This document shows, piece by piece, positions 25,425 through 61,792 of a stretch of 64,000 bases of DNA; position 1 is the first letter of the stretch; each line of letters opens with the position of its first letter. Source of the DNA: Cryobacterium suzukii (lineage in GTDB: Bacteria; Actinomycetota; Actinomycetes; Actinomycetales; Microbacteriaceae); the NCBI RefSeq assembly GCF_004403185.1, contig NZ_SOHJ01000004.1:124001-188000 (forward strand). The letters run 5' to 3'. A model generated the notes under the pieces. It was not told the origin of the DNA, searched no databases, and saw only the letters and a list, made by a program, of their open reading frames with translations. Both the position numbers and the translations under genes were made by a program.

Positions 25425-25435
25425 TTTCACGCTGA

Positions 25436-41077: not shown

Positions 41078-41100
41078 CCGGTGGGCTGACTACCGGTCCT

Positions 41101-41342: not shown

Positions 41343-41354
41343 GAGTTGGGGGCT

Positions 41355-43026: not shown

Positions 43027-43095
43027 GGACGGGGCCCGGGCCCCGTCCCCCGGCCCAGCTTATAAACTGGGCCCAGGGACGTAAGGTGGGCCCAG
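43027..43095 (+). repeat. 69-bp double-palindrome element, copy A
   Basis: This unit consists of GGACGGGGCCCGGGCCCCGT(CC), then a palindrome around TTATAAACTGGGCCC, then a tail AAGGTGGGCCCAG. It starts 17 bp after the XPB stop and points the same way as that gene. Four further copies occur at 54618, 60330, 61572 and 61724. Confidence 0.88.
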
Positions 43096-43100
43096 CGCAT

Positions 43101-43128
43101 CCCGCCCGCCCGCCCGCCCGCCCGCCCG
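43101..43128. repeat. CCCG tetranucleotide tract, seven units
   Basis: (CCCG)7 lies directly between repeat copy A and the stop codon of the pyrimidine reductase gene. Such tracts can change length by slippage. Confidence 0.85.
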
Positions 43129-43130
43129 CG

Positions 43131-43871
43131 TCAGGTTTGTCGGCGGGCGTACCGCAGGAACAGCATGTCGCCAGCGCGCAGCACGTGCAACAACTCCATG
43201 GCGCGGGTCGCATCGCTGGCGCCGACGCTGATGCGCCCGGCGGAGTTGCCCTCGAGCACCGGGCTCAGGCTGAGGCAAAGCTCGTCAACACTGCCGGCTT
43301 CGATCAGCGAACCGAACAGGTGCGGCCCGCCCTCGCAGAGAATCTGGGGCAGGCCGCGTGCGGCAAACGCCGCGACCATCATCCGCGGATCGATGGCGTC
43401 GTCGCCGCAGACCAGCACGTCGGCGACCTTCGCGAGCGCCGCCCGCCGATCGGACGGCGACCCAGCATGCGTTACGACGAGGGGACGTGTCGCAGCGTCG
43501 GTGAAAACCGGATGCCCCGGGTCGAGATCGAGTCGGCCAGACACGATCGCCAGTGGAGGCTGGTCGGCGAGGCCCTCCTCCATTCGCCAGGCCGCGTCAT
43601 CCGCTGACACCCGTATGCCGCCGTAACCCTCCGCGCGCACCGTTCCCGCGCCGACCACGATCACATCGGTCAGCAGCCGCAGCGTGTCGAAGACGATCTT
43701 GTCGTCGGCATTTCCCAGCCCGCCACTGAGGCCGTCGTGGGTCGCGGCACCGTCGAGGCTCGAGATGAAGTTGACGCGCACCCGCGGCACCGAGCGGTCG
43801 GCCACCCGGTAGCACTCGATCAGCTCGGCGCGCGATGGCAGGCTGGCCCTCGGGGGCAGCTGAGCGCGCAT
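43131..43871 (-). CDS. Pyrimidine reductase-like (RibD C-domain) protein
   Basis: A 246-residue protein with the RibD C-terminal/dihydrofolate-reductase-like fold. NFISSLDGAAT near residue 35, VIVVGAGTVRAEGYG near residue 70 and ILCEGGPHLFGSLIEAGSVD near residue 180 are conserved blocks; an NADPH-binding role is known for the family. It starts one base inside the end of the folP-like gene (TGATG), forming a leftward pair. No deaminase domain is present, so it is a stand-alone reductase. Substrate uncertain: riboflavin intermediate or a related pterin/pyrimidine. Confidence 0.88.
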   Translation of the reverse strand: MRAQLPPRASLPSRAELIECYRVADRSVPRVRVNFISSLDGAATHDGLSGGLGNADDKIVFDTLRLLTDVIVVGAGTVRAEGYGGIRVSADDAAWRMEEGLADQPPLAIVSGRLDLDPGHPVFTDAATRPLVVTHAGSPSDRRAALAKVADVLVCGDDAIDPRMMVAAFAARGLPQILCEGGPHLFGSLIEAGSVDELCLSLSPVLEGNSAGRISVGASDATRAMELLHVLRAGDMLFLRYARRQT

Positions 43872-44779
43872 CAGGCGAGGTTGTGACGCTCGTAGGCGGG
43901 CTCACGAAACCCGAGGATGGCCTCGGTCATGCGCACGGCGTCGACGGCGGCCCGCACGTTGTGCATGCGCACGATGCGGGCGCCCTGCAGAATGCACACC
44001 GTCATGGCAGCCAGGGAACCCTCCACGCGTTCGCCGCGTGGCCGGTCCAGGCTCTCCCCCACAAAATCTTTGTTGGAGACGGCGACCAGTGTCGGCAGGC
44101 CGAGCCCGGTAATCTCGCCGAGCCGCCTGGTCAGTTCGAGCGAGTGTCGAGTGGTCTTGTTGAGATCGTGGCCCGGGTCGATGATGATCCGCTCCCGCGG
44201 AACGCCGCGCCCCACAGCCCGATCGACCCGGGCCAGCAGAAACTCGCTGACATCGGCGACGACGTCGTCATAGTGCGGCGCCGGGTATGGCCTCCGCGGC
44301 ACCGCCAGACTATGGGTTATAACGAGGGTGGCGTCACTGTCCGCGACGATGTCGGCCATGGCCGGATCGTGCACTCCGGTGGTGTCGTTGATCACGTGCG
44401 CGCCGGCGGCGATGCTCGCGGCGGCCACCGCGGGGTGAAAGGTATCAACCGAGATGACCACGCTCGAGCCGCGCAGCGCCTCGATCACGGGCACCACCCG
44501 ATCGATTTCCTGCTCGATGGGCACTGCCGGTCCTGGCGCGAATTTAGCCCCGCCGATGTCGATCCAGTCGGCCCCATCGGCAATCGCACGATGCGCCGCC
44601 ACAACGGATGCGTCGAGCGCGAACGTTGCGCCCTGGTCATAGAACGAGTCCGGCGTGCGGTTGACGATGGCCATCACGGCCACCTCTCGATCGAAGTTGA
44701 AGGTGCGGCCACCGATCAGCCGGCGCGGGGCATCCATGCGAGGCAACGTCAGTGCAGTGTCGGTGGTCGTGCGGTTCAT
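43871..44779 (-). CDS. folP: Dihydropteroate-synthase-like protein (FolP2 type)
   Basis: A 302-residue TIM-barrel protein of the dihydropteroate synthase family. It starts MNRTTTDTAL, with GTGAGGA 6 bases upstream of the ATG at 44779. It shows VMAIVNRTPDSFYDQGATFA, INDTTGVHDPAMADIVADSD and a GHDLNKTTRHS block, but the pterin-binding DIGGESTRPG is DIGGAKFAPG and the SRK motif near the C-terminus is VSNKDFVGE. These changes resemble FolP2 paralogues of mycobacteria, which do not make dihydropteroate in the classic way. Its partner gene is a pyrimidine reductase. A true folP may exist elsewhere. Confidence 0.82.
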   Translation of the reverse strand: MNRTTTDTALTLPRMDAPRRLIGGRTFNFDREVAVMAIVNRTPDSFYDQGATFALDASVVAAHRAIADGADWIDIGGAKFAPGPAVPIEQEIDRVVPVIEALRGSSVVISVDTFHPAVAAASIAAGAHVINDTTGVHDPAMADIVADSDATLVITHSLAVPRRPYPAPHYDDVVADVSEFLLARVDRAVGRGVPRERIIIDPGHDLNKTTRHSLELTRRLGEITGLGLPTLVAVSNKDFVGESLDRPRGERVEGSLAAMTVCILQGARIVRMHNVRAAVDAVRMTEAILGFREPAYERHNLA

Positions 44780-44923
44780 AGCGGTCCTCACCTGTGAAAC
44801 GAGTCGATCGTTCTCTTCCATCATGTCGGTAATCCGAGTCGCCCGACGGTTATCTGCCACCGATTGCCGCACGCACCGTTCACTATCAGCAAAGCTCCAG
44901 CTAACGCGCAGATACTTGGGGGC

Positions 44924-45616
44924 ATGACTGACGGCCCCCGCATCCTTATCGTCGATGACGAACCCAATATCCGCGACCTCCTCACCACCAGCCTCCGTTT
45001 CGCCGGCTTCGCCGTGCGCGCCGTGGGCAACGGCGCGCAGGCCATCTCCGCCGTACTCGAGGAGGAACCGGACCTCATCATTCTCGATGTCATGCTGCCC
45101 GACATGAACGGGTTCGGGGTGACCAAACGCCTGCGCTCGGCCGGCTACACCGCACCGATCCTGTTCCTGACCGCCAAGGACGACACCGAAGACAAGATCA
45201 CCGGCCTCACCGTCGGCGGTGACGACTACGTGACCAAGCCGTTCAGCCTCGACGAGATCGTCGCCCGCATCAAGGCCATCCTGCGTCGCACCATGCACGC
45301 CGATGAAGACGCCGTGATCCGCGCCGGCGAACTCACCATGGACCAGGACACCCACGAGGTTCTCGTAGGCACGGAAGCCATCGAACTGAGCCCCACAGAG
45401 TTTAAGCTGCTGCGCTACCTCATGCTCAACCCCAACCGGGTGCTGTCGAAGGCGCAGATTCTGGACCATGTCTGGGAGTACGACTTCAACGGTGACGCCG
45501 GAATTGTGGAGAGCTACATCTCCTACCTGCGCCGCAAGGTCGATGTGCACTCGAGCGAACCGCTCATTCAAACCAAGCGGGGCTTCGGCTACATGCTCAA
45601 GGCTGCCAAGGCTTAG
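44924..45616 (+). CDS. OmpR-family response regulator
   Basis: A 230-residue response regulator. The receiver domain (1-120) has the acidic pair DDE, phosphorylated Asp in LIILDVMLPD (about residue 52) and the conserved Lys in VTKPFSL. The C-terminal winged helix (about 130-228) shows LSPTEFKLLRYLMLNPNRVL and SYISYLRRKVD. The ATG at 44924 follows GGGGGC. It is followed 46 bp later by its histidine kinase and divergent from the folP-like gene. The signal is unknown. Confidence 0.94.
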   Translation: MTDGPRILIVDDEPNIRDLLTTSLRFAGFAVRAVGNGAQAISAVLEEEPDLIILDVMLPDMNGFGVTKRLRSAGYTAPILFLTAKDDTEDKITGLTVGGDDYVTKPFSLDEIVARIKAILRRTMHADEDAVIRAGELTMDQDTHEVLVGTEAIELSPTEFKLLRYLMLNPNRVLSKAQILDHVWEYDFNGDAGIVESYISYLRRKVDVHSSEPLIQTKRGFGYMLKAAKA

Positions 45617-45662
45617 TTACGGCGCACGTTATACACAGCGAGCTTTCGTAGACTAAATCCAA

Positions 45663-47381
45663 ATGCACGAAACCCTGTCGAGACGGTGGAGCAGCATCTC
45701 CCTCCGTTCCAAGATCACCGGCGTCACGGTGCTGATGCTCACGCTCGGCCTGCTTGTTTCGGGCATCGGCACCATGGCAATGCTGAAGCAGTACGTGGTG
45801 ACCCAGGTCGACACGCAACTGCAGGTCGACACGCAAACCGCGCTCAGCGGCTACTCGTCGAGCGTGTTCTCGCAGGGAGACACCGAAGGCGTCGCCTCGG
45901 ACTACTTCGTGGCACTTTACGATCAGGACGGGGCCCTGATCACTCGTACCTGGCAGGAACGCGACCACGCTGAACTGCCCGTCGTGGGCATGCCGCTCGA
46001 CCTGAAACGGGTCTCTCAGCTGGACGGGCAGATCCAAACCTTGTTCAATGCCGCCCACGACACCGAGTTTCACGCGATCATGGTTCCCGTGGTGATCAGC
46101 CCCACCGGCACCTACGGAACCCTCGTCATGGCGGTGTCGCTCCGGCCGACCGAAAACACCATGGCCACCTACCTCACGATCTTCCTGGGCTTCGGCGCTG
46201 GGGTGGTCTTGATCGGGGCCATGCTCACCCGAGTGCTCGTCACGACCACCTTCGTGCCGCTGCGTGAGGCCGAGCAGACCGCCGCGGCCATCGCCGACGG
46301 TGACTTCAGCCAGCGCCTCGGCGGTGCCACCCCGAACACCGAGGTCGGTCGCCTCAACCGTTCGCTCAACATCATGCTCAGCCGCATCGACCGTGCTTTC
46401 AAGGACCGCGCCCGTACCATCGACCAGATGCGCCGCTTCGTCGGCGATGCGAGCCACGAATTGCGCACCCCGCTCGTTTCAGTCCGTGGCTACGCCGAGC
46501 TGTACCGCATGGGTGCGCTGCAGACGCCCGAAGATGTTGCCCAGGCCATGGAACGCATCGAAAAAGAGGCCATTCGCATGGGCGGCCTAGTCGAGGATCT
46601 GCTCGAACTGGCCCGCCTCGACGAGACCAAGCCGCTGGCTCTGACCCCGGTGGATCTCGTTCCGCTGGCCCGCGACGCCGCCCTCGACACCATGGCCAGC
46701 TCCCCCGGCCGCCAGGTCACCGTACTCACTCCGCCGCCGGTCGATCCGGGCGGCGACGACCTCGATATGAATCTTGACGGGGACTCCGGAGACGGAAACG
46801 ACTCGTCGGAGAGCGTCACCACCGGCGCCATTACCCGCCCGACGGGAACCGGCACACCGACCGGCGCCATCGCCTTTGCCGGCGCCACCCTCGCCCGGCT
46901 GCGCACCCGCAAGCCCCGTCGGGGAAGCTCCGTTACGCCCGACGCCGACCTCACCACATTGCCGGTGGATGCGCAACTACCGCCGATCGTCATGGCTGAA
47001 GAGAACAAGATTCGCCAGGTCATCACCAATCTCATGGGCAACGCGATGCGTTTCACCGCCGCTGACAGCCCGATAGAACTCGAAGTCATGGTAGATTCGC
47101 GCAACCAGCGGGCATCGATCGCCGTGATCGACCACGGCGAAGGTATTCCGCCGCAGATTCGAGAGAAGATCTTTCAGCGCTTCTGGCGTGCCGACTCCTC
47201 TCGCGCCCGCGAAACCGGCGGCAGCGGCCTTGGACTGGCCATCGTCGCCGCGATCGTCGCGAGCCACAACGGCACGGTCGACGTCGTCGAAACCCCCGGC
47301 GGCGGCGCGACCTTCCGCGTTTCACTCCCGCTCGCCGGCACGCCGAGCGCACCACAGCACGCGCAGCCCGTCATTCCGTAA
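45663..47381 (+). CDS. Sensor histidine kinase with linker insert
   Basis: A 572-residue membrane kinase, partner of the upstream response regulator. A first membrane helix (about 18-40) and a second (about 168-192) bracket an extracellular sensor of some 125 residues; HAMP follows (about 193-250). The phosphoacceptor is His265 in GDASHELRTPL. The ATPase domain (about 440-560) has N-box ITNLMGNAMRF, G1 DHGEGIPP and G2 GGSGLGLAIV. Between the two lies an unusual insert (about 358-438), rich in Asp, Gly, Thr and Pro and then Arg. Most family members lack it, so the kinase may have an extra regulated linker. Confidence 0.93.
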   Translation: MHETLSRRWSSISLRSKITGVTVLMLTLGLLVSGIGTMAMLKQYVVTQVDTQLQVDTQTALSGYSSSVFSQGDTEGVASDYFVALYDQDGALITRTWQERDHAELPVVGMPLDLKRVSQLDGQIQTLFNAAHDTEFHAIMVPVVISPTGTYGTLVMAVSLRPTENTMATYLTIFLGFGAGVVLIGAMLTRVLVTTTFVPLREAEQTAAAIADGDFSQRLGGATPNTEVGRLNRSLNIMLSRIDRAFKDRARTIDQMRRFVGDASHELRTPLVSVRGYAELYRMGALQTPEDVAQAMERIEKEAIRMGGLVEDLLELARLDETKPLALTPVDLVPLARDAALDTMASSPGRQVTVLTPPPVDPGGDDLDMNLDGDSGDGNDSSESVTTGAITRPTGTGTPTGAIAFAGATLARLRTRKPRRGSSVTPDADLTTLPVDAQLPPIVMAEENKIRQVITNLMGNAMRFTAADSPIELEVMVDSRNQRASIAVIDHGEGIPPQIREKIFQRFWRADSSRARETGGSGLGLAIVAAIVASHNGTVDVVETPGGGATFRVSLPLAGTPSAPQHAQPVIP

Positions 47382-47515
47382 GGCACTTCGCCGCGTCCTC
47401 TACAGGCGGCCAGCGGCGGTATCCACGCACAGATCCGTTTCAGAGAGCGGATGCCGCGCTCTCACCTTCTACGCTGACAGTCACCAACCACTGTTATGTA
47501 GGAGAAGGGCACAAC

Positions 47516-47806
47516 ATGACGAGCTTTCAGGTCGACAGCGATGCGGTTCAGAGCACAGCGAGTACCGCCCGTGGCACCATTGCGCGCGTGCAAGCAGATG
47601 TCGGCGACCTCAACGCCCAGCTGACCAGCCTCGAAGGCTTCTGGACCGGCCAGGCCTCCACGGCCTTCCAGGGGGCATTCGCCGAGTGGCGAGGCATGCA
47701 CCAGCAGCTGGAAGAGAGCCTGACCCTGCTGAACCAGGCCTTGAGCGTGGCCGGGCAGCAGTACGCCGAGACCGAGCAGGCTAACACCCGCCTGTTTGTT
47801 CGATAG
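47516..47806 (+). CDS. WXG100-family (ESAT-6-like) protein
   Basis: A 96-residue helical hairpin protein of the WXG100 family, substrates of type VII secretion. The WxG motif is in EGFWTGQASTAFQGAF near residue 43, with the N-terminal helix DSDAVQSTASTARGTIARVQ and the C-terminal helix EESLTLLNQALSVAGQQYAE. The ATG at 47516 follows GGAGAAGG. No EccC, EccD or other type VII component lies in the window, and no partner WXG100 gene lies next to it, so it would be secreted by machinery elsewhere or act as a homodimer. Confidence 0.9.
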   Translation: MTSFQVDSDAVQSTASTARGTIARVQADVGDLNAQLTSLEGFWTGQASTAFQGAFAEWRGMHQQLEESLTLLNQALSVAGQQYAETEQANTRLFVR

Positions 47807-47900
47807 GCATCCGCTGTAATTGTGGGGCTGCCGGTCATTCCCGGGGGAAGAAGTTTCGCGCCCGTGTGGCCACAAACTCAAGAGTCGGACGTGCGAGACG

Positions 47901-47939
47901 CACAAAGTGGGCGCCCCCGAAGGAGACGCCCACTTTGTG
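47901..47939. terminator. Terminator behind groEL
   Basis: CACAAAGTGGGCG (47901-47913) pairs exactly with CGCCCACTTTGTG (47927-47939) with a 13-base loop. It lies 25 bp past the groEL stop and can also end the rightward WXG100 transcript. Confidence 0.8.
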
Positions 47940-47963
47940 GTGTTCGTTGGTGCTGGCTCGGAC

Positions 47964-49662
<1,699 letters not shown>

Positions 49663-49733
49663 ATAGATTCTGGCACTCTGGGGTCGAGAGTGCAAGCGAG
49701 CATCCGGGGTTATGCCGGGCCAGCTCCCGACGG

Positions 49734-50786
49734 TCAGGGAACGAGATCGGTCGAGCCGGTGCCGTTGGGCACCAACTGAAACCAGGTATTGCCCGGGGCG
49801 AGCCGAATCGTCACTCCATGACCATCGACGAGGCGGATCGGTGCGGTCTGAGAGTCCTTGCTCCAGGTGGCCGCGAGGGTTTTTCCACCGGTCGAGATCG
49901 ACGCTTCGCCCGAGGCGATGAGCTCGGTCTTGGGGATGCTTTGGTCGACGGTGATGTCCACCCGCAGCACGACAACGTTGGTGGCGGCGAGCTGCACACC
50001 GTCGCCGGTGAGGTCGGGCGCGCCGTCCTGCGCGCGCAGGTAAGCGGTGGCTTCAGCATTCCAGGTCCAGCTACGGGCGCTCGCGTCGGAGAACCGGGCG
50101 TTGATCACTGAAATCGGGGCGCCGTCCACGGCAGCGGACGCCCCGGCGAGCGTGGCCGCATAGGCGTATTGCTGGGCGGGCGGGGCGACTGTGATGTTGC
50201 GGTTGACGAATTCCGAGGCGGCAAGAATGACGTTGTGCGGGGCCGCGGTAGCGTTCGAACGGGAGAACAGGCCAGTCGTGTCATAGTCGAAGATGGCACT
50301 GATCTGACCGGTCGCGGTCATGGCGTCGACGAATCGCTGCTGGCCGCCCGAAAACGCCACGAGGCCGCTGAACGGGGCGATGATGTCGGGGTCCATCGGG
50401 CGGATCGACCGTACCGGTCCGACCTGGTCGGGAATGCTCGACTGCCACACGGCGACGTACCGGGTGATGCCGCCCTCAACCAGTTCTTCGAACACGAGGT
50501 CGGTGCGGTCGATCGCGACCTGCGGGCGGGCCGCCACATGGTTGTCGATCTTGGCCGCGAGGGAGGGGTTCGTCGACGATCCGACTGCCATAGCAATTCC
50601 GGTGAGCGGGGCGATCTCCGCGGCGGCGGGGGCAACATAGCCCGAAGTCCAGGCGGGAGCTGGCGTCTTGGTCGGTGTCGCAGTACTGCCAGAGCATCCG
50701 CTCAGCAACAGTGCCGGAACGATCAAAGCGAGCAGAACCGAGGGCTTGAACGGTCGCGCGGAGCGAGTTGTCTTTTTCTTGGTCAC
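49734..50786 (-). CDS. DUF3048 lipoprotein
   Basis: A 350-residue lipoprotein of the DUF3048 family (YerB-like). The signal peptide (VLLALIVPALLLSGCSG) ends in lipobox LLSGC with Cys31. The rest has the DUF3048 N-terminal block (LTGIAMA; VFEELVEGGITRYVAVWQSS; VGPVRSIRPMDPDI) and the C-terminal DUF3048_C (LVPNGTGSTDLVP). Function unknown; the family is linked to the cell envelope. Single leftward gene upstream of groEL, with the terminator at 50796-50827 between it and the cold-shock gene. Confidence 0.9.
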   Translation of the reverse strand: MTKKKTTRSARPFKPSVLLALIVPALLLSGCSGSTATPTKTPAPAWTSGYVAPAAAEIAPLTGIAMAVGSSTNPSLAAKIDNHVAARPQVAIDRTDLVFEELVEGGITRYVAVWQSSIPDQVGPVRSIRPMDPDIIAPFSGLVAFSGGQQRFVDAMTATGQISAIFDYDTTGLFSRSNATAAPHNVILAASEFVNRNITVAPPAQQYAYAATLAGASAAVDGAPISVINARFSDASARSWTWNAEATAYLRAQDGAPDLTGDGVQLAATNVVVLRVDITVDQSIPKTELIASGEASISTGGKTLAATWSKDSQTAPIRLVDGHGVTIRLAPGNTWFQLVPNGTGSTDLVP

Positions 50787-50795
50787 CGGTAAACA

Positions 50796-50827
50796 CTAAC
50801 GCCGCCCGTTGCAGCGGGCGGCGTTAG
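50796..50827. terminator. Terminator of the cold-shock gene
   Basis: CTAACGCCGCCCG (50796-50808) pairs exactly with CGGGCGGCGTTAG (50815-50827) with a 6-base loop, 30 bp downstream of the leftward cold-shock gene. Confidence 0.8.
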
Positions 50828-50857
50828 GTGGGGGACAGACCCCGATTACGGGGTGAG

Positions 50858-51061
50858 TCAGGCCGGTCGAACCGATTCAGCCTGGGGGCCTTTCGCTCCG
50901 GCACCGACCTCGAAGACGACCTGCTGGCCTTCTTCGAGAACCTTGTACCCGCTCATGTCAATGGCGGAGTAGTGGACGAAAACGTCTTGTCCTCCCCCAT
51001 CGACAGTGATGAAGCCGAAACCCTTTTCAGCGTTGAACCATTTAACGGTTCCGTTCGCCAT
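50858..51061 (-). CDS. Cold-shock protein
   Basis: A 67-residue single cold-shock domain: [20 protein letters not shown] with RNP1 KGFGFITVD and RNP2 DVFVHYSAI. It binds single-stranded RNA/DNA and acts as an RNA chaperone. The AAGGAG upstream of the ATG at 51061 is optimal. Unlike the protein at 38436-38816 it has no extension. The 282-bp region upstream (51062-51343) holds no gene but two direct repeats. Confidence 0.95.
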
Positions 51062-51174
51062 GTGTTACTCCTTGCTCAATTTCGACGGCACCGCCCATTG
51101 GCTGTTCCGGGCCGTGTCGCAGAAGCTGCGTTCATTCTGTGCGAGCAGCAAATCCCCGAGAGCAAGTCTTCTGT

Positions 51175-51203
51175 TGCAAGTTACCTACTGGTGCAAGTTA
51201 CCT
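51175..51203. repeat. Pair of 12-bp direct repeats upstream of cold-shock gene
   Basis: TGCAAGTTACCT occurs at 51175-51186 and 51192-51203, 17 bp apart. They lie 113 bp upstream of the cold-shock start and could be sites for a regulator. The other DNA of this gap shows nothing else. Confidence 0.45.
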
Positions 51204-51343
51204 TGGGCGAGTGTTCTTGATCCGGGCGGGTATTGCCCGAACAAAATGTGTGACCAAAACCAGATAATACTGAAGCCACGGCGAAAGAAAAGGGGCTTGA
51301 CGAATCGGGCAACGCCCACTAGGTCCGAAGTTTCGAGTGCCTG

Positions 51344-51907: not shown

Positions 51908-51963
51908 AGTGATTGGATCCTTGATTGGCCGGCCGTCGCATGCCGGCGAAATGCGGTCAGGTA

Positions 51964-52913: not shown

Positions 52914-52917
52914 AGCG

Positions 52918-53499
52918 GTGAGTCTGCCTCTCTCGACAACAAATGTTGCCACGTCTGCGGTCTTTCAGGCCGTCAATTGCCGGCGCAGCTATTCCAAGGT
53001 GACAGCTCCCGCGCCAACTCGGGCCGAGTTGTTGCCCCTGGTGGCGGCAGCGGCACGGGTGGCCGATCACGGCGCGCTTCGGCCGTGGCGCCTGCTCGAA
53101 CTCCGCGGCGAAGCACGGGAGCGACTGGGATCGGCGTTTGTGGCGGCATCGGGTTGCGAAGGCGGTGAAGCCATCAAACTGGCCGGCAAGCCGCTGCGGG
53201 CGCCGCTGCTGATTGCAGTGGTCGCCGTACGGCGCGTCAGCGACAAGGTGGCCGATTGGGAACAGGATGCGTCGGCGGCGGGCGTCGCGCACCTGCTCAC
53301 GCTACTGCTCGACGACGCTGGCTGGGGTGCGATGTGGCGCACCGGGCCGCTCGCGCGCACGGCAGCGGTGCGTGCGGTGCACGACCTCGCCGACAACGAG
53401 GAGCTGCTCGGATGGCTGTATGTCGGCGGCATTCCAGTGGACTGCAAGCCTGGTGTGCGGCTGTCAATCGACCCCGCGGAGTTTCTCGAGGTTCTGTAA
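52918..53499 (+). CDS. Nitroreductase-family protein
   Basis: A 193-residue flavin-binding nitroreductase-like protein. The Arg/Ser-rich FMN-phosphate contact CRRSYSKV appears near residue 22, and GWGAMWRTGPLARTAAVRAV near residue 140 with LGWLYVGGIPVDC after it fit the family. It starts GTG 4 bp after msrB, so it is translated with it. The reducing substrate (nitro-aromatic, quinone or other) is not deducible. Confidence 0.88.
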   Translation: MSLPLSTTNVATSAVFQAVNCRRSYSKVTAPAPTRAELLPLVAAAARVADHGALRPWRLLELRGEARERLGSAFVAASGCEGGEAIKLAGKPLRAPLLIAVVAVRRVSDKVADWEQDASAAGVAHLLTLLLDDAGWGAMWRTGPLARTAAVRAVHDLADNEELLGWLYVGGIPVDCKPGVRLSIDPAEFLEVL

Positions 53500-53544
53500 T
53501 CGAACTCGGGTCCTCGGCGCTGTTTCTAGGCGCCGGCGCTGGTC

Positions 53545-54543
53545 TTAGGCGCGGACGTGGCCGGGGCGACGCCAGCGCACCGCGGCGATGACCACGGCCA
53601 CGAGCGCCAGCGCGGTCCCGACGATGGTCGTCACTCCGAGCGGATGCCCCGCCGTTGGCGCGAGCAGATCCAGCGCGAGGGCGCAGACCAGCTGGCCGGC
53701 CACGATGCATAGACCGAGCATCAGTACCCCGGTAGTGCGCACGACGACCGCGGCCCCGGCGATGAAGACACAGCCGATGAGTCCGCCGGTGTAGAGCCAC
53801 GGGTTTTCCGGCAAGTCGAGCGCGAAACCCACCAAAAGGCTGTGCACGAGGGCGGCGAATACAAGGGCGATGGTGCCGGTGAGAAAGTTCAGGAAGGTCG
53901 CCGTGAGCGCGCTCTGGGCCGTGACCCGCACCTGACCGTTGACGGCCTGCTGCCAGCCTTGACCGATACCGGCGACGAGCGGCAGAGCGAGCAGCCAGAG
54001 CGCGCCGCTGCCGCGCAGTTCGCCGCTCACCGTGAAGGCGACGGCGATCAGGGCGAGCGCGGCACCAACGATTTTGGACGCGTGCAGGGGACGTCGCCCG
54101 CCCGGGCCGATGCCAAAACGATCCATGAGCACACCGCTCACGGTCTGGCCGGCCACCACGGCGACCGTGAACAACGCGATGCCGAGCGGCGCGGCGACGA
54201 GGCCCTGCGACAGCACGAACAAGGCGCCGGCCAGGCCGCCGAACAAGTGCCACCAGGAAAGGTGTTTTGCCGAAACAGCACGCGCGACCAGTTGAAGGCC
54301 GCGGCGTCCGCGGCGAAACACGGTCAGGCCGAGGCTAAGAATGACCAGGCCGGAACCGAAGGAGATGACGGCGGCGATGAAACCGTCGCCGATTTGATGC
54401 CCCAGTTCGCCGTTCACCCGTGATTGCACGGCGTACATGGCGCCGATCAGCACCGAGAAGACGAGGGCCAGCCAGACCGGTACAGCGGATGCCCCGAGCG
54501 CGGCTGACGCATCCGTTCGTTTTCGTGCGCGGTCATGGGTCAC
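53545..54543 (-). CDS. DMT-family transporter (YdcZ/DUF606 pair)
   Basis: A 332-residue membrane protein with ten hydrophobic segments in two similar halves, each of the DUF606/YdcZ type (SRVNGELGHQIGDGFIAAVI in the first half and VNGQVRVTAQSALTATFLNF in the second). Such proteins belong to the drug/metabolite transporter superfamily. The two halves are fused in one chain, where many relatives are separate. Substrate unknown. It converges on the nitroreductase gene. Confidence 0.85.
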   Translation of the reverse strand: MTHDRARKRTDASAALGASAVPVWLALVFSVLIGAMYAVQSRVNGELGHQIGDGFIAAVISFGSGLVILSLGLTVFRRGRRGLQLVARAVSAKHLSWWHLFGGLAGALFVLSQGLVAAPLGIALFTVAVVAGQTVSGVLMDRFGIGPGGRRPLHASKIVGAALALIAVAFTVSGELRGSGALWLLALPLVAGIGQGWQQAVNGQVRVTAQSALTATFLNFLTGTIALVFAALVHSLLVGFALDLPENPWLYTGGLIGCVFIAGAAVVVRTTGVLMLGLCIVAGQLVCALALDLLAPTAGHPLGVTTIVGTALALVAVVIAAVRWRRPGHVRA

Positions 54544-54617
54544 CCGGTAATACTACGAGATCGGGTGCGCTGCCGCGCCGCCCGGCCCATCTGGCCCGCC
54601 CTTGGGCCGCTGGGCCG

Positions 54618-54686
54618 CTGGGCCCACCTTGTGACCGTGGGCCCAGTTTATAACCTGGGCCCACGGTCCGGGCCCAGGCCCCGTCC
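54618..54686 (-). repeat. 69-bp double-palindrome element, copy B
   Basis: Same 69-bp unit as copy A, reversed. It begins 20 bp after the stop of the leftward ABC-F gene and points the same way as that gene. The first palindrome is partly eroded on its right arm. Confidence 0.85.
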
Positions 54687-54706
54687 ATAGAAGAGGGCGG
54701 GGCGGG

Positions 54707-56302
<1,596 letters not shown>

Positions 56303-56473
56303 GCGTGTTTCCTTTCAGGGCGCGCGGGCATCCGCTCCTAAAACCCCAGCCATCAGTGTACGTGGCGGCCCGGTGCGGCCCGGCGGCCCTTGGCGGTGGC
56401 GCTTGCGAGCGCGCAGCGACTTGCCTACGGTCCGGTCTGTTCGGGGCCTGAGCCGCCTGCACAGTAGAGAAAA

Positions 56474-56502
56474 CCCCCTACTTCCCAGTCGGGAGTAGGG
56501 GG
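56474..56502 (-). terminator. Terminator of the tRNA-Thr transcript
   Basis: On the minus strand CCCCCTACTCCC pairs with GGGAAGTAGGGGG (one bulge) with a 4-base loop, then TTTTC. It lies 7 bp past the tRNA-Thr 3' end. Confidence 0.8.
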
Positions 56503-56508
56503 CGGGAG

Positions 56509-56581
56509 GGCCGGCCACGGGACTTGAACCCGTAACCCCCACTTTACAAGAGTGGTGCGCTACCAATTGCGCCAGGCCGGC
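56509..56581 (-). tRNA. tRNA-Thr (anticodon TGT)
   Basis: A 73-nt cloverleaf on the minus strand. The acceptor GCCGGCC pairs with GGCCGGC, the D-arm is GCGC/GCGC, the anticodon arm CCACT-CTTGTAA-AGTGG gives TGT (reads ACA), and the T-arm is ACGGG-TTCAAGT-CCCGT. No CCA is encoded and the discriminator position is C, which is unusual for a Thr tRNA. Confidence 0.9.
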
Positions 56582-56695
56582 ATGAGGCGCGAGGCCTCAG
56601 TCCACCATCCTAAATGATTTCAGCGCTGCCTCGGGCAACAGCCAAGCGGATGCGCGTGGCGCGAGTTGACGCACTCGCTTCTACGACGTGGGGCA

Positions 56696-57610
56696 CTACC
56701 CGCCGGGGGTCGGCTCTGGCGTTGGCGTGGAGGTGGAGTACGTCTCGCCAAGGGCCACCTGAACGAAGGACGCGAACTCTTTCGGGTCTTCGAGTGATCC
56801 GGTATATGGCTTGCCGTTGACCAGAATGGTCGGCGTTCCAATGATGGACTCCATCGAGGAATTGGGGATAGGACCGTCGAGCGCACGGTTGGTCGCCGCC
56901 GTAACCCACGACTCGTACGTGCCGTCTTCGATGCAGGAATTGACGTTGGAGAGGGCCGTGCTCACGCCCGATTCCCGGACGACGGCCTTGATCTCGTCGT
57001 TGCTGCGGCCGGGCGATGTCTCTTCCGGCTGGTCGACGAACAGGGCGGAGCTGAAGGCGAAGAAATCATCCGGCGAATAATTGGCGACGCACGCTGCCGC
57101 GTTCGCCGCGCGCAGGGAGTACTTGGTGCCGGCGGATTTGCTCGTGAGAATGGCGACCGGGTGAATTTCGACTGTTGCAGCGCCGGAGTCTACCCATTGG
57201 GCGATTTGTTCATTGTTGGCGTCTTCGAATTCGCCGCAGAGCGGGCATAGGTAGTCGACGTAGACGCGGATGTTGGCTATCGCGCCAGTGGTATCCGGCT
57301 CGGACGGCCTCGGGTTCGCGTCGGGTTGCAATGCGGGCGTCAGAGCGGTAACCATGCCCTCGCCGATGAGCGCGCCGTCACTGGCCATATTTTTAGGGCC
57401 CGGACCAGCCGGTTTGATCGAATTCACGATGATGACGGAAACCAAAACGACGATCGCGACGGCTGCGATGGCGATGCCGCCCTGCAAAAATATCTTGTTG
57501 CGGCGGTCCTTCTTCTTTTGACTGACTCGAAGCTGCTTGGCTTTCACCCGGGCGGCGTCACGCCGCCGGTTTTTTGAGGGACTGCCGTCGCCTGGCCCGC
57601 CAATAGTCAT
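56696..57610 (-). CDS. Membrane-anchored DsbA-like thioredoxin-fold protein
   Basis: A 304-residue protein with a basic cytoplasmic N-terminus, a single membrane segment (FLQGGIAIAAVAIVVLVSVI, about 43-66) and an extracytoplasmic DsbA/thioredoxin_4 domain. The redox motif is CPLC in VDYLCPLCGEFED; the cis-proline loop is IIGTPTILVNGKP. A further Cys pair (AACVANY; NSCIEDG) may be structural. It likely forms or repairs disulfides in exported proteins. The ATG at 57610 is used; the ribosome-binding site is weak. Confidence 0.88.
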   Translation of the reverse strand: MTIGGPGDGSPSKNRRRDAARVKAKQLRVSQKKKDRRNKIFLQGGIAIAAVAIVVLVSVIIVNSIKPAGPGPKNMASDGALIGEGMVTALTPALQPDANPRPSEPDTTGAIANIRVYVDYLCPLCGEFEDANNEQIAQWVDSGAATVEIHPVAILTSKSAGTKYSLRAANAAACVANYSPDDFFAFSSALFVDQPEETSPGRSNDEIKAVVRESGVSTALSNVNSCIEDGTYESWVTAATNRALDGPIPNSSMESIIGTPTILVNGKPYTGSLEDPKEFASFVQVALGETYSTSTPTPEPTPGG

Positions 57611-57820
57611 AAAAGATCGCTTTCGAGAAGTGGAGGCGCGCGTGAAGGCACCTCTGAAATAGTAGGTCCCCTGACTGGGAATCGACCAAACGGGGCGCGA
57701 ACCCGCGCCGGAGCATCCGTCGTGTAATACTGATACAGACGCGTGCTTCGGCACGCGATGCATAAATCCTATTCACAACGGATCGTCCGGCACGTTCCTG
57801 CCGGTGAAGGAGTAATAATT

Positions 57821-58918
57821 ATGGCTTCAGTGACCTTTGACAAGGCAACTCGGCTCTACCCTGGTTCCACGAGGCCGGCCGTTGACCAGCTCGACCTCCA
57901 GGTCGCCGATGGCGAATTCCTGGTTTTGGTCGGCCCGTCCGGCTGCGGCAAGTCCACCTCACTGCGTATGCTCGCCGGCCTCGAAGAGGTCAACGACGGC
58001 AATATCTTTATCGGTGAGCGCAACGTGACGGATGTTCCGCCGAAAGACCGTGACATCGCTATGGTCTTTCAGAACTACGCGCTGTACCCGCACATGACCG
58101 TCGCCGAGAACATGGGTTTCGCGCTCAAGATCGCTGGCATCAACAAAGACGAGCGCGCCGCCCGCGTGCTCGAAGCGGCCAAACTGCTCGATCTGGAGCC
58201 CTACCTCAGCCGCAAGCCGAAGGCCCTCTCCGGTGGCCAGCGTCAGCGCGTTGCCATGGGCCGCGCGATCGTGCGTCAGCCGCAGGTGTTTTTGATGGAT
58301 GAGCCGCTCTCCAACCTCGACGCCAAGCTGCGCGTGCAGACGCGCACCCAGATTGCTTCGTTGCAGCGCCGGCTCGGCGTCACCACCGTCTACGTGACCC
58401 ACGACCAGACCGAGGCTCTCACAATGGGCGACCGGATTGCGGTCCTGAAGGACGGCGTCCTGCAGCAGGTCGGTTCGCCCCGCGACCTGTACGCGAAGCC
58501 GCAGAACGTGTTTGTGGCCGGCTTTATCGGCAGCCCCGCGATGAACCTGTTCCTCGCGGACACCGTCGATGGCGGCATCAAGTTCGGCACGGCGACCGTT
58601 CCCGTGCAGCGCGAGACGCTCTCCAGCTCGACCGGCAAGAAGGTCACCGTTGGCATTCGCCCGGAAGACATCCAAATGTCGTCCACCGCCGGCGACGGCC
58701 TGCAGATCGAGGTCGACCTGGTCGAGGAACTCGGCGCCGACGGCTACCTCTACGGTCACTCCACGATCGAGGGCAAGCGCACCGACATCGTCGCGCGCGT
58801 CGACGGCCGTTCGCACCCGAACGCCGGCGAGACGGTGTACCTCACGGCCACACCGAACCACCTGCACGTCTTCGACGCTGAAAGCGGCCTGCGCCTCGGC
58901 GGCGCCGTCACCGACTAA
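57821..58918 (+). CDS. Sugar ABC transporter ATPase (MsmK/UgpC type)
   Basis: A 365-residue ATPase of carbohydrate uptake. Walker A GPSGCGKSTSLRM, Q-loop MVFQNYALYPHMTV, signature LSGGQRQRVAMGRA and Walker B VFLMDEPLSNLDAKLR are all intact, and the C-terminal 120 residues form the OB/TOBE regulatory domain of MsmK-type proteins. The ATG at 57821 follows GAAGGAG by 8 bases. It has no receptor or permease genes beside it, so it probably energises several importers encoded elsewhere. A strong terminator follows. Confidence 0.95.
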   Translation: MASVTFDKATRLYPGSTRPAVDQLDLQVADGEFLVLVGPSGCGKSTSLRMLAGLEEVNDGNIFIGERNVTDVPPKDRDIAMVFQNYALYPHMTVAENMGFALKIAGINKDERAARVLEAAKLLDLEPYLSRKPKALSGGQRQRVAMGRAIVRQPQVFLMDEPLSNLDAKLRVQTRTQIASLQRRLGVTTVYVTHDQTEALTMGDRIAVLKDGVLQQVGSPRDLYAKPQNVFVAGFIGSPAMNLFLADTVDGGIKFGTATVPVQRETLSSSTGKKVTVGIRPEDIQMSSTAGDGLQIEVDLVEELGADGYLYGHSTIEGKRTDIVARVDGRSHPNAGETVYLTATPNHLHVFDAESGLRLGGAVTD

Positions 58919-58929
58919 TCAGTATCGTA

Positions 58930-58965
58930 AAACGGCTGGCGGGAGTTCGCTCCCTCCAGCCGTTT
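58930..58965 (+). terminator. Terminator of the sugar ATPase gene
   Basis: AAACGGCTGG (58930-58939) pairs with CCAGCCGTTT (58956-58965), with an inner GGAG/CTCC pair, and a T-rich tail TTTGTTGTTTG follows. Located 11 bp after the stop. Confidence 0.85.
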
Positions 58966-58986
58966 GTTGTTTGTTAGGGTCAAATA

Positions 58987-60297
58987 ATGAGCGGTTCACT
59001 CAACATCACCTCGGCCACGGTCGATCCTGCCCTGCTCGACCTGCCGTGGCAGCTGCCCCTCGACGCATGGCCGAATGAGAACATCGCCTCGCTGCCGAAG
59101 GGCATCTCCCGCCACCTTGTGCGGTTCGCCCACCTGAGCGGGCGGGTGGTCGCCATCAAGGAGACCACGAGCGAGATGGCCAAGCGCGAATACGAAATGT
59201 TGCGCACCCTGGCCAACCTCGAGATTCCCTGCGTCGAGCCGGTAGCGGTCATCACCAACAGAACGGATGCCGCGCTCGACCCGCTTAATTCGGTTTTAGT
59301 CACGCGTCACCTCAAGTTTTCGCTCCCCTACCGCGCGCTGTACTCGCACGAGCTGCGCCCGGATACCGCCACCAGGCTGGTCGACGCCCTCGCGGTCCTG
59401 CTGGTGCGCCTGCACATGATCGGTTTTTTCTGGGGCGACGTTTCGCTTTCCAATACCCTGTTTCGCCGCGACGCCGGCGCCTTCGCCGCCTACCTCGTCG
59501 ACGCTGAAACCGGACAGCTGTACGCGGGCGGTTTGTCGAATGGTCAACGCGAAAACGATCTCGAAATCGCCCGAGTGAACATCGCCGGCGAGCTAATGGA
59601 TCTGGAGGCCGGCGGTCGCGTCGCCGACGAGCTCGACCCGGTACGCGTCAGCAACGGCATCGTCGCGGCCTACCGGCTGCTCTGGCAGGAACTCACCGGC
59701 TCCGAGTCCTTCTCCAACTCCGAACGCTGGCGAATTGCGCAACGGGTGGAACGCCTCAACGACCTCGGCTTCGATATCGAGGAACTCGCCATCAAAACCG
59801 ACAAGACGGGTTCAAGCGTACGCATCCAGCCGAAAGTCGTCGACGCTGGCCACCACCAGCGCCGGCTCCTGCGCTTGACCGGCCTCGATGCAGAAGAGAA
59901 CCAGGCCCGCCGGCTGCTGAACGACCTCGACTCTTATCGTGCTGCCTACGGCGATCCTGGAGCCGACGAAGAGATGGTCGCGCACGAGTGGCTGGTGCGG
60001 GTGTTCGAACCGGTAGTACGGGCCATTCCGGAGGACCTGCGAGGCAAGCTCGAGCGGGCCCAGGTGTTTCACCAGTTGCTCGATCACCGCTGGTTCATGG
60101 CGCAAAACCAGTCGCGGGACATTCCGCTCGCCGAGGCCGTAACTTCGTACGTGCAGGACGTACTGCGCCACCGCCGCGACGAGGCGACCGTGATCGACCC
60201 GCTCACCGGGGCCATCACCCTGCCGATTCGCACGCAGCTCGGCGACGACGCGTCCGCTGACCCCGACGATGCCGACGACTGGATGCTCAAGGTCTAG
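58987..60297 (+). CDS. DUF4032 protein with kinase-like fold
   Basis: A 436-residue protein of the DUF4032 family, related to lipopolysaccharide-kinase/RIO-like folds. Residues about 35-180 hold the kinase-like part: VVAIKETTSEMAKREYEMLR supplies the Lys, HMIGFFWGDVSLSNTLFR the catalytic loop, and YLVDAETGQ the metal-binding Asp. The C-terminal half (about 200-430) is helical and family-specific (DYRAAYGD-like block; FHQLLDHRWFMAQNQSRDIP). Substrate unknown. It is a single rightward gene. Confidence 0.84.
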   Translation: MSGSLNITSATVDPALLDLPWQLPLDAWPNENIASLPKGISRHLVRFAHLSGRVVAIKETTSEMAKREYEMLRTLANLEIPCVEPVAVITNRTDAALDPLNSVLVTRHLKFSLPYRALYSHELRPDTATRLVDALAVLLVRLHMIGFFWGDVSLSNTLFRRDAGAFAAYLVDAETGQLYAGGLSNGQRENDLEIARVNIAGELMDLEAGGRVADELDPVRVSNGIVAAYRLLWQELTGSESFSNSERWRIAQRVERLNDLGFDIEELAIKTDKTGSSVRIQPKVVDAGHHQRRLLRLTGLDAEENQARRLLNDLDSYRAAYGDPGADEEMVAHEWLVRVFEPVVRAIPEDLRGKLERAQVFHQLLDHRWFMAQNQSRDIPLAEAVTSYVQDVLRHRRDEATVIDPLTGAITLPIRTQLGDDASADPDDADDWMLKV

Positions 60298-60329
60298 CCC
60301 TGCGCCAGGTGAGTTCTGGCTTCTCTTGT

Positions 60330-60398
60330 GGACGGGGCCCAGGCCCCGTCCACGGGCCCAGTTTATAGGCTGGGCCCGCGGTCACAAGGTGGGCCCAG
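60330..60398 (+). repeat. 69-bp double-palindrome element, copy C
   Basis: Same unit and orientation as copy A, 32 bp after the stop of the DUF4032 gene and pointing with it. Confidence 0.88.
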
Positions 60399-60460
60399 GC
60401 GCCGTGACGACGGAAACTCGCGCCCCCTCAGGGTACGCGCGGGGCGCATCCGCTGCCGGT

Positions 60461-61447
60461 TTAGGCGCGCGGAACGTCGTGCTGAATCATGAATTCGTAG
60501 AATAAGCGGGGAGAGTAAGCCGTGTCCCAGTCCCAGCGATCGAAGCTGGCGACTTCCGGGCGCAGGAGATTTTCGCGATTCTTCTCGACGACAACCACAT
60601 CGCCCGGGTGCCGGTCGCCCAATATTGCGCCCCGGGTGTACTTGATTTTGCCGTCGAATTCGCCGATCTTGCGCACTCCACGCCAGAAGAAGTCGACCCA
60701 GTATTCACGGCCCTGCACGACGAAGCACACCTGAAGTTCGGGTATCTCGAAACCCAACTCGGCCATGCGCACCCGGCTCAACGACTCGCCAGGATTGGCA
60801 GCCAGCGGATTCGCGAAGTCTATGACCCGACGCACCTTCGGGCCTCCGCGTCTCGGATGCACCATCGCCAGTTCCGCATAGAGGTCGTCCTTGGAGAGTA
60901 CCGGCGCGCTGAGGCTGCCCTGCCGACGTTCCCGCTGCCCGCGCTCCTGCTCCACGCGCAGGGCGTGGTCCATCATCGTGACGCCGACGAGAAAGCTTGA
61001 GGTTGCCGCCACGTCGATGAGGGTGCGCGTAAGGGTGGTGGCAGCGCAACCGTTTATCGTGACCGGCTCCGGCTCGACCACGCTCCGATGGCTCGTGGTG
61101 AATCGGGCGCTGCTGCCGCCGGCCGTGTCGTTGTTGATCGCGTGCACGACCTTGGGCCACGGTCCGATGATGGGCAAATTGTGCAGCGCTGCCGCCGAAT
61201 GATGGGAGAGGAGGAGCGGTTCCTCGGCCGTGACCACAGTGGCACGAACGAATAGTCGATAATGGTCGTCGCTCTCGGCACTGCGCCAGGTGTCCCCCAA
61301 GGCATAGACTCCCCGGCGGATGCGTACAAGCTCACCATTCGCAAGCAGTGCGCGCACCGCGCGGGTGTTCAGGCCCGCTGCCCACAGGGACTCGGCGAGA
61401 ATCAGGCCGCCGTTGTGGGCACTTGGAACATCCAGAATCTCGAGCAT
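60461..61447 (-). CDS. AbiEi-like winged-helix / DUF559-like protein, second copy
   Basis: A 328-residue paralogue of 25524-26588. The winged helix (LLANGELVRIRRGVYALGDT), AbiEi-like part (LLLSHHSAAALHNLPIIGPW; CAATTLTRTLIDVAATSSFL) and DUF559-like part (WVDFFWRGVRKIGEFDGKIK) are in the same order. The ATG at 61447 is preferred over a TTG two codons upstream. No toxin gene is adjacent. Copies of the 69-bp repeat lie on both sides. Role unknown. Confidence 0.7.
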   Translation of the reverse strand: MLEILDVPSAHNGGLILAESLWAAGLNTRAVRALLANGELVRIRRGVYALGDTWRSAESDDHYRLFVRATVVTAEEPLLLSHHSAAALHNLPIIGPWPKVVHAINNDTAGGSSARFTTSHRSVVEPEPVTINGCAATTLTRTLIDVAATSSFLVGVTMMDHALRVEQERGQRERRQGSLSAPVLSKDDLYAELAMVHPRRGGPKVRRVIDFANPLAANPGESLSRVRMAELGFEIPELQVCFVVQGREYWVDFFWRGVRKIGEFDGKIKYTRGAILGDRHPGDVVVVEKNRENLLRPEVASFDRWDWDTAYSPRLFYEFMIQHDVPRA

Positions 61448-61571
61448 GACCAATGGTCACCATGTTCAGTAGGTGGATGGTGTGACATCGACTGATCTGC
61501 GGAAATCGGGCGGAAGCATCCGCTGTGGAGGACAGGCAACGGTCGGAACGTCCAGGCAATCGCGATGGTCG

Positions 61572-61640
61572 CCAGGCCCACCTTATGAACAGGGGCCCAG
61601 TCTATAAACTGGGCCCGTGGACGGGGCCCGGGCCCCGTCC
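61572..61640 (-). repeat. 69-bp double-palindrome element, copy D
   Basis: Same unit, reversed, in the gap 61448-61807 that has no gene. Its start is 152 bp from that of copy E in direct orientation, so the two form a tandem pair behind rlmB. Confidence 0.88.
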
Positions 61641-61723
61641 GAGAAACCGCACCGACACGATACTCGAACCGCGCGGGCCGAACGCGAGACGTGTCGCCAC
61701 CCGATTTCGGCACACTCTACGCG

Positions 61724-61792
61724 ACGGGCCCACCCTATGGCCATGGGCCCAGTCTATAAACTGGGCCCGTGGACGGGGCCCAGGCCCCGTCC
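61724..61792 (-). repeat. 69-bp double-palindrome element, copy E
   Basis: Same unit, reversed, 15 bp after the rlmB stop and pointing with that gene. It is nearest to copy D in sequence: both have TTTATAGACTGGGCCC in the second palindrome. Confidence 0.88.

What the first reader, a model, noticed from the sequence alone, without database searches (positions are those of the whole stretch)
43027..61792. Five copies of a 69-bp double-palindrome element, always pointing with the gene before it
Copies at 43027, 54618, 60330, 61572 and 61724 are each exactly 69 bp and align without gaps: a 22-bp palindrome of the type GGACGGGGCC/GGCCCCGTCC, a 24-bp palindrome around TTATA flanked by GGGCCCAG and CTGGGCCC, and a tail with AAGGTGGGCCC. 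All are intergenic. Four lie 15-32 bp behind a stop codon (XPB, ABC-F, DUF4032, rlmB) and every copy points the same way as that upstream gene. Random transposon-like spread would not give such strand consistency. They look like a family of 3'-end elements: terminators without a T-run, mRNA 3' stabilisers, or REP-like repeats selected for this position.
Basis: partly seen in the sequence, partly recalled or inferred. Interest (0 to 1): 0.72.

Follow-up and report, generated by a model that had tools for sequence, protein, structure and literature searches.

The report
Paired-hairpin tags behind gene stops
In Cryobacterium bacteria a 69-base pair of hairpin-forming palindromes sits just behind the stop codons of dozens of genes and keeps its paired design while its spelling changes between species; it likely ends or caps the RNA of the gene in front of it.

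Summary
Confirmed and extended. The five copies are real, and their genome (3.46 Mb, genus Cryobacterium) holds 48 copies: 32 directional (H1-H2-tail), 12 mirror-symmetric (H1-H2-H1), 4 other. The 44 copies with two called neighbours lie in convergent (21) or tandem (23) gaps, never divergent ones, although 53 of 144 element-free gaps nearby are divergent. In tandem gaps the directional form follows the gene in front (12 of 14; 26 of 31 in other species). At three orthologous gene ends in 18 genomes, 49 of 49 clearly orientable copies point with that gene (2 unclear). The element is 91% identical between species inside flanks at 61-63%. It has 'dialects': A and B align over 69 columns without gaps, with changes on both sides in 10 of 22 pairs; a symmetric dialect C occurs in 14 genomes. 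It has no U-run and no target duplication, no Y1 (RAYT) transposase is found in 57 genomes, and dialect A is absent from the phage and plasmid sets. Best reading: a genus-specific hairpin-cluster terminator or mRNA 3'-end protector, not a RAYT-driven REP. Termination itself is untested. At one locus the dialect tracks the alleles of an AbiEi-like gene, as if block-exchanged between stop codons.

The parts
43027..43095 (+). Copy 1, dialect A, H1-H2-tail, 16 bp behind the XPB stop; convergent with a RibD_C gene
54618..54686 (-). Copy 2, dialect A, 20 bp behind the ABC-F stop; tandem with a YdcZ-type exporter gene
60330..60398 (+). Copy 3, dialect A, 32 bp behind the DUF4032 stop; convergent with the AbiEi-like gene
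61572..61640 (-). Copy 4, dialect A, second tandem copy 167 bp behind the rlmB stop
61724..61792 (-). Copy 5, dialect A, 15 bp behind the rlmB stop
43027..43048 (+). H1 palindrome of copy 1 (arm that faces the stop codon)
43051..43074 (+). H2 core palindrome of copy 1
43075..43095 (+). Tail arm (T) of copy 1; in the family its first bases can extend H2 by pairing with the linker and the 3' end of H1
60461..61453 (-). AbiEi-like gene (PF13338) lying between inverted copies; its alleles track the dialect of the flanking elements

Best explanation
The 69-bp element is a Cryobacterium family of two-hairpin elements placed at gene 3' ends, and it likely works in the transcript as a terminator without a U-run or as a barrier that protects the mRNA 3' end. 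Shown: its place behind stop codons, its near-absence from divergent (promoter) gaps, its direction relative to the gene in front in tandem gaps, its conservation inside drifting DNA, and compensatory change in H1, H2 and the linkers. Inferred: once the ribosome has reached the stop codon, H1 (9-10 bp, nearly all G-C) folds a short distance downstream, H2 (8-10 bp, extended by the linkers and the start of the tail) folds next, and the pair stalls and releases RNA polymerase or marks the end left by Rho and 3' exonucleases. Bases at the 3' end of H1 can pair either within H1 or with the tail (column 22 with column 1 or with column 51), so the two helices compete at their edge. The mirror-symmetric forms would serve both strands.
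For: Place: of element-bearing gaps of 60 bp or more in the fetched stretches 21 are convergent, 22 tandem, 0 divergent; without the element 18, 73, 53 (Fisher for divergent P=1.1e-7); the convergent share of 49% is near what one element per gene 3' end would give (45%). Direction. Spacing: 29 same-direction own copies, median 16 nt behind the stop, 15 of 29 at 7-20 nt; PMC4824070 (abstract and one section read) argues that at least 10-15 nt between ribosome and hairpin are needed for folding, and reports that an E. coli terminator 5 bp behind a stop is repressed. Conservation: 25 orthologous sites (47 pairs), element 91.2% identical (88.4% outside the H2 core, which the search itself had selected), 40-bp flanks 61-63%, unrelated DNA 48%; the element beats both flanks at 24 of 25 sites. 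Pairing: 54 A+B sequences, 92.1% of cells paired, covariation 0.298 against 0.105 shuffled (0 of 500), falling to 57% and 51% paired when slid by one column. The H2-extended alternative has 93.1% paired. Linkers covary within dialect A: 24 and 21 of 32 own copies (7 and 1 of 2000 shuffles reach this), 42 and 45 of 71 others (0 of 2000). Folding z-scores of the five copies are -2.2 to -5.4. Precedent: U-lacking structured 3' ends outnumber U-rich structured ones in Streptomyces clavuligerus, 353 to 182 (PMC8269248, passages); hairpin clusters near stops without a U trail (PMC8355165, abstract and two sections).
Against: No RNA data of any kind. The pairing data do not separate an RNA hairpin from a DNA palindrome: sense-strand G-T cells (64) do not clearly exceed antisense ones (57) over H1, H2, linkers and extension in directional copies. 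In convergent gaps H1 is not consistently nearer its stop than the tail is (25 of 47). The spacing peak is weaker in other species (median 23 nt, 22 of 61 at 7-20 nt), where 2 of 105 copies are divergent. Linkers do not covary in the own symmetric copies (3 and 3 of 12). In Streptomyces the U-lacking ends show more read-through than the U-rich ones (PMC8269248, passages). 25 of 48 copies lie on one contig with 15% of the genome (P=4e-9), which termination does not explain. Sequence identity among copies is higher than shape alone needs, so something homogenises them. The A/B compensatory changes are mostly one lineage split counted many times. The simple terminator scan calls no copy, as expected without T, but it does call a weak hairpin with a T-rich tail at 60304-60320, between the DUF4032 stop and copy 3 (19 sites in the region against 13.1 shuffled).
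Confidence: 0.66

Rival explanations
1. A REP/REPIN- or MITE-like non-autonomous mobile element that lands behind stop codons and is tolerated there; any termination effect is secondary.
For: Many near-identical copies per genome (24-66 of dialect A in nine carrier genomes), tandem duplications (61572/61724; L034:743 and 857; L039:3981 and 4128), genome-wide dialects.
Against: No Y1_Tnp (RAYT family) in 57 of 57 genus genomes, while the same search rings in E. coli and four other controls; other transposase families were not searched. No target-site duplication of 4-10 bp in 103 directional or 38 symmetric copies. Copies stay at the same orthologous gene ends across species. Dialect A has no match in 50,697 phage records, 72,556 plasmid records or the viral contigs (dialects B and C were not searched there).
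Confidence: 0.14
2. A DNA-level signal: a protein-binding or recombination site (uptake-sequence-like watermark, cruciform, chromosome-organising site) that is parked at gene ends because these are permissive.
For: Both arms are DNA palindromes and many dialect C copies are nearly perfect palindromes of about 68 bp. Sense/antisense wobble counts are balanced. Copies cluster on contig C10. The dialect tracks the AbiEi-like allele in what look like stop-to-stop exchanges. Neisseria uptake sequences also have dialects and often form terminators (PMC3630211 abstract; PMC2397512 passages).
Against: About 50 copies per genome, not thousands; strong preference for 3' ends and a direction tied to the gene in front, which a parked DNA site does not need; parS-like sites lie on another contig (C13), so C10 is not shown to be a special domain; no binding protein is known.
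Confidence: 0.16
3. The palindromes are only GC-rich low-complexity remnants without function.
For: The host DNA is GC-rich; H1 is almost pure G and C.
Against: Near-zero chance matches by shuffling and 0 matches to the backward control pattern genome-wide; compensatory change and conservation inside drifting flanks.
Confidence: 0.02

Closest known systems
U-lacking structured 3' ends / I-shaped terminators of GC-rich actinobacteria (PMC8269248, passages)
   Same: Strong G-C hairpin, no U-run or A-run.
   Different: Those are defined by mapped RNA ends, not by a common sequence; this is one sequence family with two ordered hairpins and a conserved tail, and no RNA end has been mapped.
Hairpin-cluster intrinsic terminators (PMC8355165, abstract and two sections)
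   Same: Two hairpins close together, mostly within 80 nt of the stop, no poly-U needed.
   Different: Not described there as repeated families (in the parts read); here both hairpins and the tail are near-identical at some 50 places and come in dialects.
REP / REPIN with RAYT transposase (PMC8049555, abstract and passages)
   Same: Short palindromic extragenic repeats, tens of copies, tandem pairs.
   Different: No Y1 transposase found in the genus, tied to the 3' end and its direction, stable at orthologous sites.
Neisseria DNA uptake sequence dialects and DUS terminators (PMC3630211 abstract; PMC2397512 passages)
   Same: Species dialects of one repeated signal, often used as terminators, linked to recombination.
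   Different: Tens of copies of a 69-bp structured unit instead of thousands of 10-12-mers; no evidence of uptake.
Stem-loop sequence families of bacterial genomes (PMC2267715, abstract and two sections)
   Same: Intergenic repeat families sharing a predicted hairpin, some probably terminators.
   Different: No Cryobacterium family is described in what was read; this one is modular (H1 or T arms around a shared core) and shows dialect replacement at fixed sites.

Membership tests
REP/REPIN with RAYT | RAYT (Y1_Tnp, PF01797) gene in the genome or its relatives | tested here: not met
   0 of 57 genus genomes; the search rings in 5 of 14 control genomes
REP/REPIN with RAYT | Short extragenic palindromic repeat in many copies | tested here: met
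   48 copies, palindromic H1 and H2
MITE | Target-site duplication at the ends | tested here: not met
   No matching flanks of 4-10 bp in 103 directional and 38 symmetric copies
MITE | Parent insertion sequence with the same ends | not tested
   No genome-wide search for insertion sequences with these ends was made
Canonical intrinsic terminator | U-run right behind the hairpin | tested here: not met
   At most 2 T in 8 nt behind H1 in 103 distinct directional copies; at most 4 behind H2, and 4 in only 12 of 103; no copy called by the scan
Hairpin-cluster or I-shaped terminator | One or more stable hairpins within about 80 nt behind a stop codon | tested here: met
   a minority of copies lie farther (e.g. 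61572)
Hairpin-cluster or I-shaped terminator | RNA 3' end or loss of reads at the site | not testable with these tools
   No RNA data held
DNA uptake sequence | Hundreds to thousands of copies per genome | tested here: not met
   At most 66 dialect-A cores and 72 dialect-B cores in any of the genomes searched
DNA uptake sequence | Stimulates DNA uptake | not testable with these tools
   none
Rfam families | Match at or above a family's gathering score | tested here: not met
   Only three tRNAs and msiK RNA in the window; no match at any copy

The most novel reading that the evidence does not exclude
A terminator family with dialects and no known transposase: structured gene-end tags whose spelling is homogenised within a genome and replaced between sister species by recombination, so that the tags double as the boundaries at which single genes (here the AbiEi-like gene) are swapped between species from stop codon to stop codon, a structural counterpart of Neisseria uptake-sequence dialects.
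Probability: 0.22. Interest if true: 0.82.

Novelty: new variant of a known kind. Interest (0 to 1): 0.58.

Why it matters
How GC-rich actinobacteria end transcripts without U-runs is still open. A family of some fifty near-identical, directional, two-hairpin gene ends, with mirror-image natural variants and three dialects, gives a ready-made set for testing which hairpin, which edge pairing and which tail base matters. It also poses a second question that can be tested directly: what keeps the copies alike within genomes in which no RAYT was found, and why does the dialect follow a neighbouring gene.

Tried and rejected
REP/RAYT: rejected as to a Y1 transposase; other transposase families were not searched. 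MITE with target duplication: no excess. Phage or plasmid origin: no match for dialect A. Origin-linked site: the parS-like sites lie on contig C13, not on the copy-rich contig C10. Sense-RNA proof from G-U asymmetry: tried, inconclusive, 64 against 57 cells. Dialect following flanking-gene trees: the ABC-F, DUF4032, rlmB, msiK and Eam trees need 3-5 changes, not significantly fewer than shuffled labels (lowest P 0.11); only the AbiEi tree fits the DUF4032 and rlmB sites (1 change, P 0.002 and 0.004; these two sites carry the same labels where both are scored, so this is one observation). G037 was left out; its AbiEi-like allele groups on the B side (support 100 for B plus G037) while its element has an A-like core, which does not fit a simple A/B rule. 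Relatives outside Cryobacterium: 0 of 63 genomes with the dialect A core at up to 2 mismatches; a joint covariance model over 398 family genomes (strict filters, 12 candidates scored per genome) gave only weak 36-38-bit hits in three genomes of two other genera, not followed up. No printed description seen in the listings of five searches (two searches listed 15 of 2,696 and 12 of 419 papers); most subscription papers are not held. No protein-database search, structure prediction or fold search was used.

Several of those species are the same genomes as the G handles, so the two data sets overlap. The own-genome count needs an H2 core with at most 3 mismatches, so one H1-only copy (L019:3813) and a weak hit (C12:81738) are left out. 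Two own copies fall inside ORF calls of the home-made gene finder and two have one neighbour only. Gene calls are home-made. In one search, 31 of the 32 own directional copies (L039:4128 left out), the one own dialect B copy and 22 of the 29 other-species dialect B copies found were aligned.
Full report
THE OBSERVATION. The five copies exist as described and are far beyond chance. The anatomy is H1 (22 bp), a 2-bp linker, H2 (24 bp) and a 21-bp tail (T).

THE FAMILY IN THIS GENOME. The window is part of contig C10 of a 3.46-Mb, 15-contig genome. H1 has 55 sites and H2 47-48 sites at up to 2 mismatches, with no match to the reversed control patterns. Reading the stretches around them gave 48 H2-anchored copies: 32 H1-H2-T (directional), 12 H1-H2-H1 (mirror-symmetric) and 4 others, of which two are T-H2-T. 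The unit is modular: a shared core with either an H1 arm or a T arm on each side.

PLACE AND DIRECTION. With home-made gene calls, 21 of 48 copies are convergent, 23 tandem, 0 divergent, 2 have one neighbour only and 2 fall inside ORF calls. In the same stretches the element-free gaps of 60 bp or more are 18 convergent, 73 tandem, 53 divergent. The observed convergent share (49%) is near what one element per 3' end predicts (45%). In tandem gaps 12 of 14 directional copies follow the gene in front; symmetric ones 4 of 7. In 80 of 102 stretches from other Cryobacterium species 105 copies gave 44 convergent, 51 tandem, 2 divergent, 8 with one neighbour; directional tandem 26 of 31, symmetric tandem 7 of 15. 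Around ABC-F, DUF4032 and rlmB in 18 genomes a strict rule on the tail orients 14, 16 and 19 copies behind these three genes, all 49 pointing with that gene; two more behind ABC-F are unclear (a symmetric copy in G045 and a degraded one in G043), three further copies behind the Eam gene also point with it, and one extra weak match in G031 that overlaps a true copy was not counted. Related genomes share these sites by descent, so the 49 are not 49 independent events.

CONSERVATION. Elements occupy the same orthologous gaps in other species, and in most pairs shown the symmetric or directional type is the same (output cut; one site, L037:4048, is directional in this genome and symmetric in L147 and L150). 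Over 25 own sites (47 pairs) the element is 91.2% identical against 61-63% in the 40 bp on either side; 24 of 25 sites have the element above both flanks. Because the other-species stretches were found by an exact H2 core, the part outside the core was recomputed: 88.4%.

DIALECTS. Beside dialect A there is dialect B, in which H1 is about TTTCCGGGCCCGGGCCCGGAAA and the core GGGCCCATGATNNATCATGGGCCC. A/B core counts per genome run from 47/1 (own) and 66/3 (G012) to 13/50 (G041) and 13/72 (G047); sister species can differ sharply (G017 63/7, G035 10/42; tree of ABC-F and rlmB). A and B align over 69 columns without a gap (54 sequences). A model of both run over 398 family genomes found strong hits in the three carrier genomes sampled (G000, G012, G035) and weak ones that exposed dialect C: TCGCGGCGCAGGTTGTGGAAGC, GGGCGCACGGTAGAACGTGCGCCC and the mirror arm, about 68 bp, T-H2-T, in 14 of 57 genus genomes at up to 1 mismatch, four of them with a single place; 13 of the 14 have no A or B core at the thresholds used. 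Of 29 copies of C read, 16 are convergent, 12 tandem, 1 without context, 0 divergent (cruder gene calls). T-H2-T may therefore be the older form, with H1 replacing one or both T arms in the clade of this genome (inference).

PAIRING. On the A+B alignment H1 plus H2 plus linkers has 92.1% of cells paired, 10 of 22 pairs with changes on both sides, and a covariation score above all 500 shuffles (the number of pairs with two-sided change is reached by 58 of 500); sliding by one column drops pairing to 57% and 51%. An alternative in which H2 extends into the end of H1 scores 93.1%: column 22 pairs with column 1 in 45 and with column 51 in 52 of 54 sequences, so that strand is shared by two helices. 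Linkers covary within dialect A in directional copies but not in the 12 own symmetric ones. Many cells reflect one A/B split. Wobble counts do not favour the sense strand (64 against 57), so DNA palindromes are not excluded. Single-sequence folds of the 103 distinct directional copies form H1 in 71 and H2 in 88; in the 38 symmetric copies H2 forms and H1 gives way to longer pairing between the arms.

NO MOBILE PARTNER FOUND. No Y1_Tnp in 57 of 57 genus genomes, no target duplication, no match of dialect A in phages, plasmids or viral contigs.

A LINKED SURPRISE. The AbiEi-like gene between the copies at 60330 and 61572 exists in two allele classes. All eight genomes with the A-class allele have A-dialect elements at the DUF4032 and rlmB ends; the five B-class genomes have B where a core could be called (G034 has no H2 core at rlmB). 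G037, an outgroup with an A-like core in its own spelling, groups with the B alleles and was left out of the test. G019, sister of this genome by ABC-F and rlmB, has the B block; G014, grouped with G034 and G049, has the A block. Identity of G019 to this genome is 89-98% along DUF4032 (98% in the last full 100-bp window), 59-92% in the block and 91-98% in rlmB beyond its end; G035-G017 behaves alike (91-99%, 56-85%, 92-99%) and G014-G034 less sharply (84-93%, 51-83%, 87-97%). Dialect labels at these two sites fit the AbiEi tree with one change but not the trees of the flanking genes. Four clade genomes lack the gene at this locus (G028, G036, G043, G049); G043 and G049 keep a short H1-like palindrome there.

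MECHANISM. The most economical reading is a 3'-end RNA device: terminator without U-run, or end protector, at a median of 16 nt behind the stop in this genome. Literature precedents were read in part only (PMC8269248 passages; PMC8355165 abstract and two sections; PMC4824070 abstract and one section). Each step in the transcript is inferred. Homogenisation, dialect replacement and the C10 cluster remain unexplained.

Noticed in passing
window 60461-61453 with 60330-60398 and 61572-61792: AbiEi-like gene (PF13338) whose alleles track the dialect of the flanking elements, as if swapped between species from stop codon to stop codon; absent at this locus in four clade genomes.
   Followed up: partly
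G000 contig C10: 25 of 48 copies lie on one contig that is 15% of the genome (P=4e-9); the parS-like sites lie on C13. Unexplained.
   Followed up: partly
L234:12222-12608 (G013): A transposase-like gene end inserted inside the H2 core of the ABC-F copy (dialect B); the protein end looks IS30-like (recalled, no family search made).
   Followed up: partly
L019:3813-3834: H1 alone, without H2, about 21 nt behind a stop codon, and H1-like palindromes alone where the AbiEi-like gene is missing (L197, L200): H1 may act on its own.
   Followed up: no
L202 and L247 (G037): A further spelling of the element outside the main clade, with a different H1 (GCACGGGGCGCGGGCCC...) and an A-like core, again in tandem behind rlmB.
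   Followed up: no
window 60304-60320: A weak hairpin with a T-rich tail between the DUF4032 stop and copy 3; not part of the element.
   Followed up: no
window 25425-25507 and 26736-26818: Another repeated hairpin pair (GCGGGAGTTGCGCC...GGCGCAACTCCCGC), 83 bp, 89% identical; possibly another gene-end family.
   Followed up: no
window 41100-41369: Tandem 54-bp repeats just upstream of the XPB gene.
   Followed up: no
window 57760-57818: msiK RNA (Rfam RF01747, 62 bits) overlapping the start of the called ABC transporter ATPase gene.
   Followed up: no
behind several tails, e.g. L031, L043, L047: The tail is followed by GGCGAGCGGATGCC in several copies; AGCGGATGC seems frequent in this genome, not counted.
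   Followed up: no
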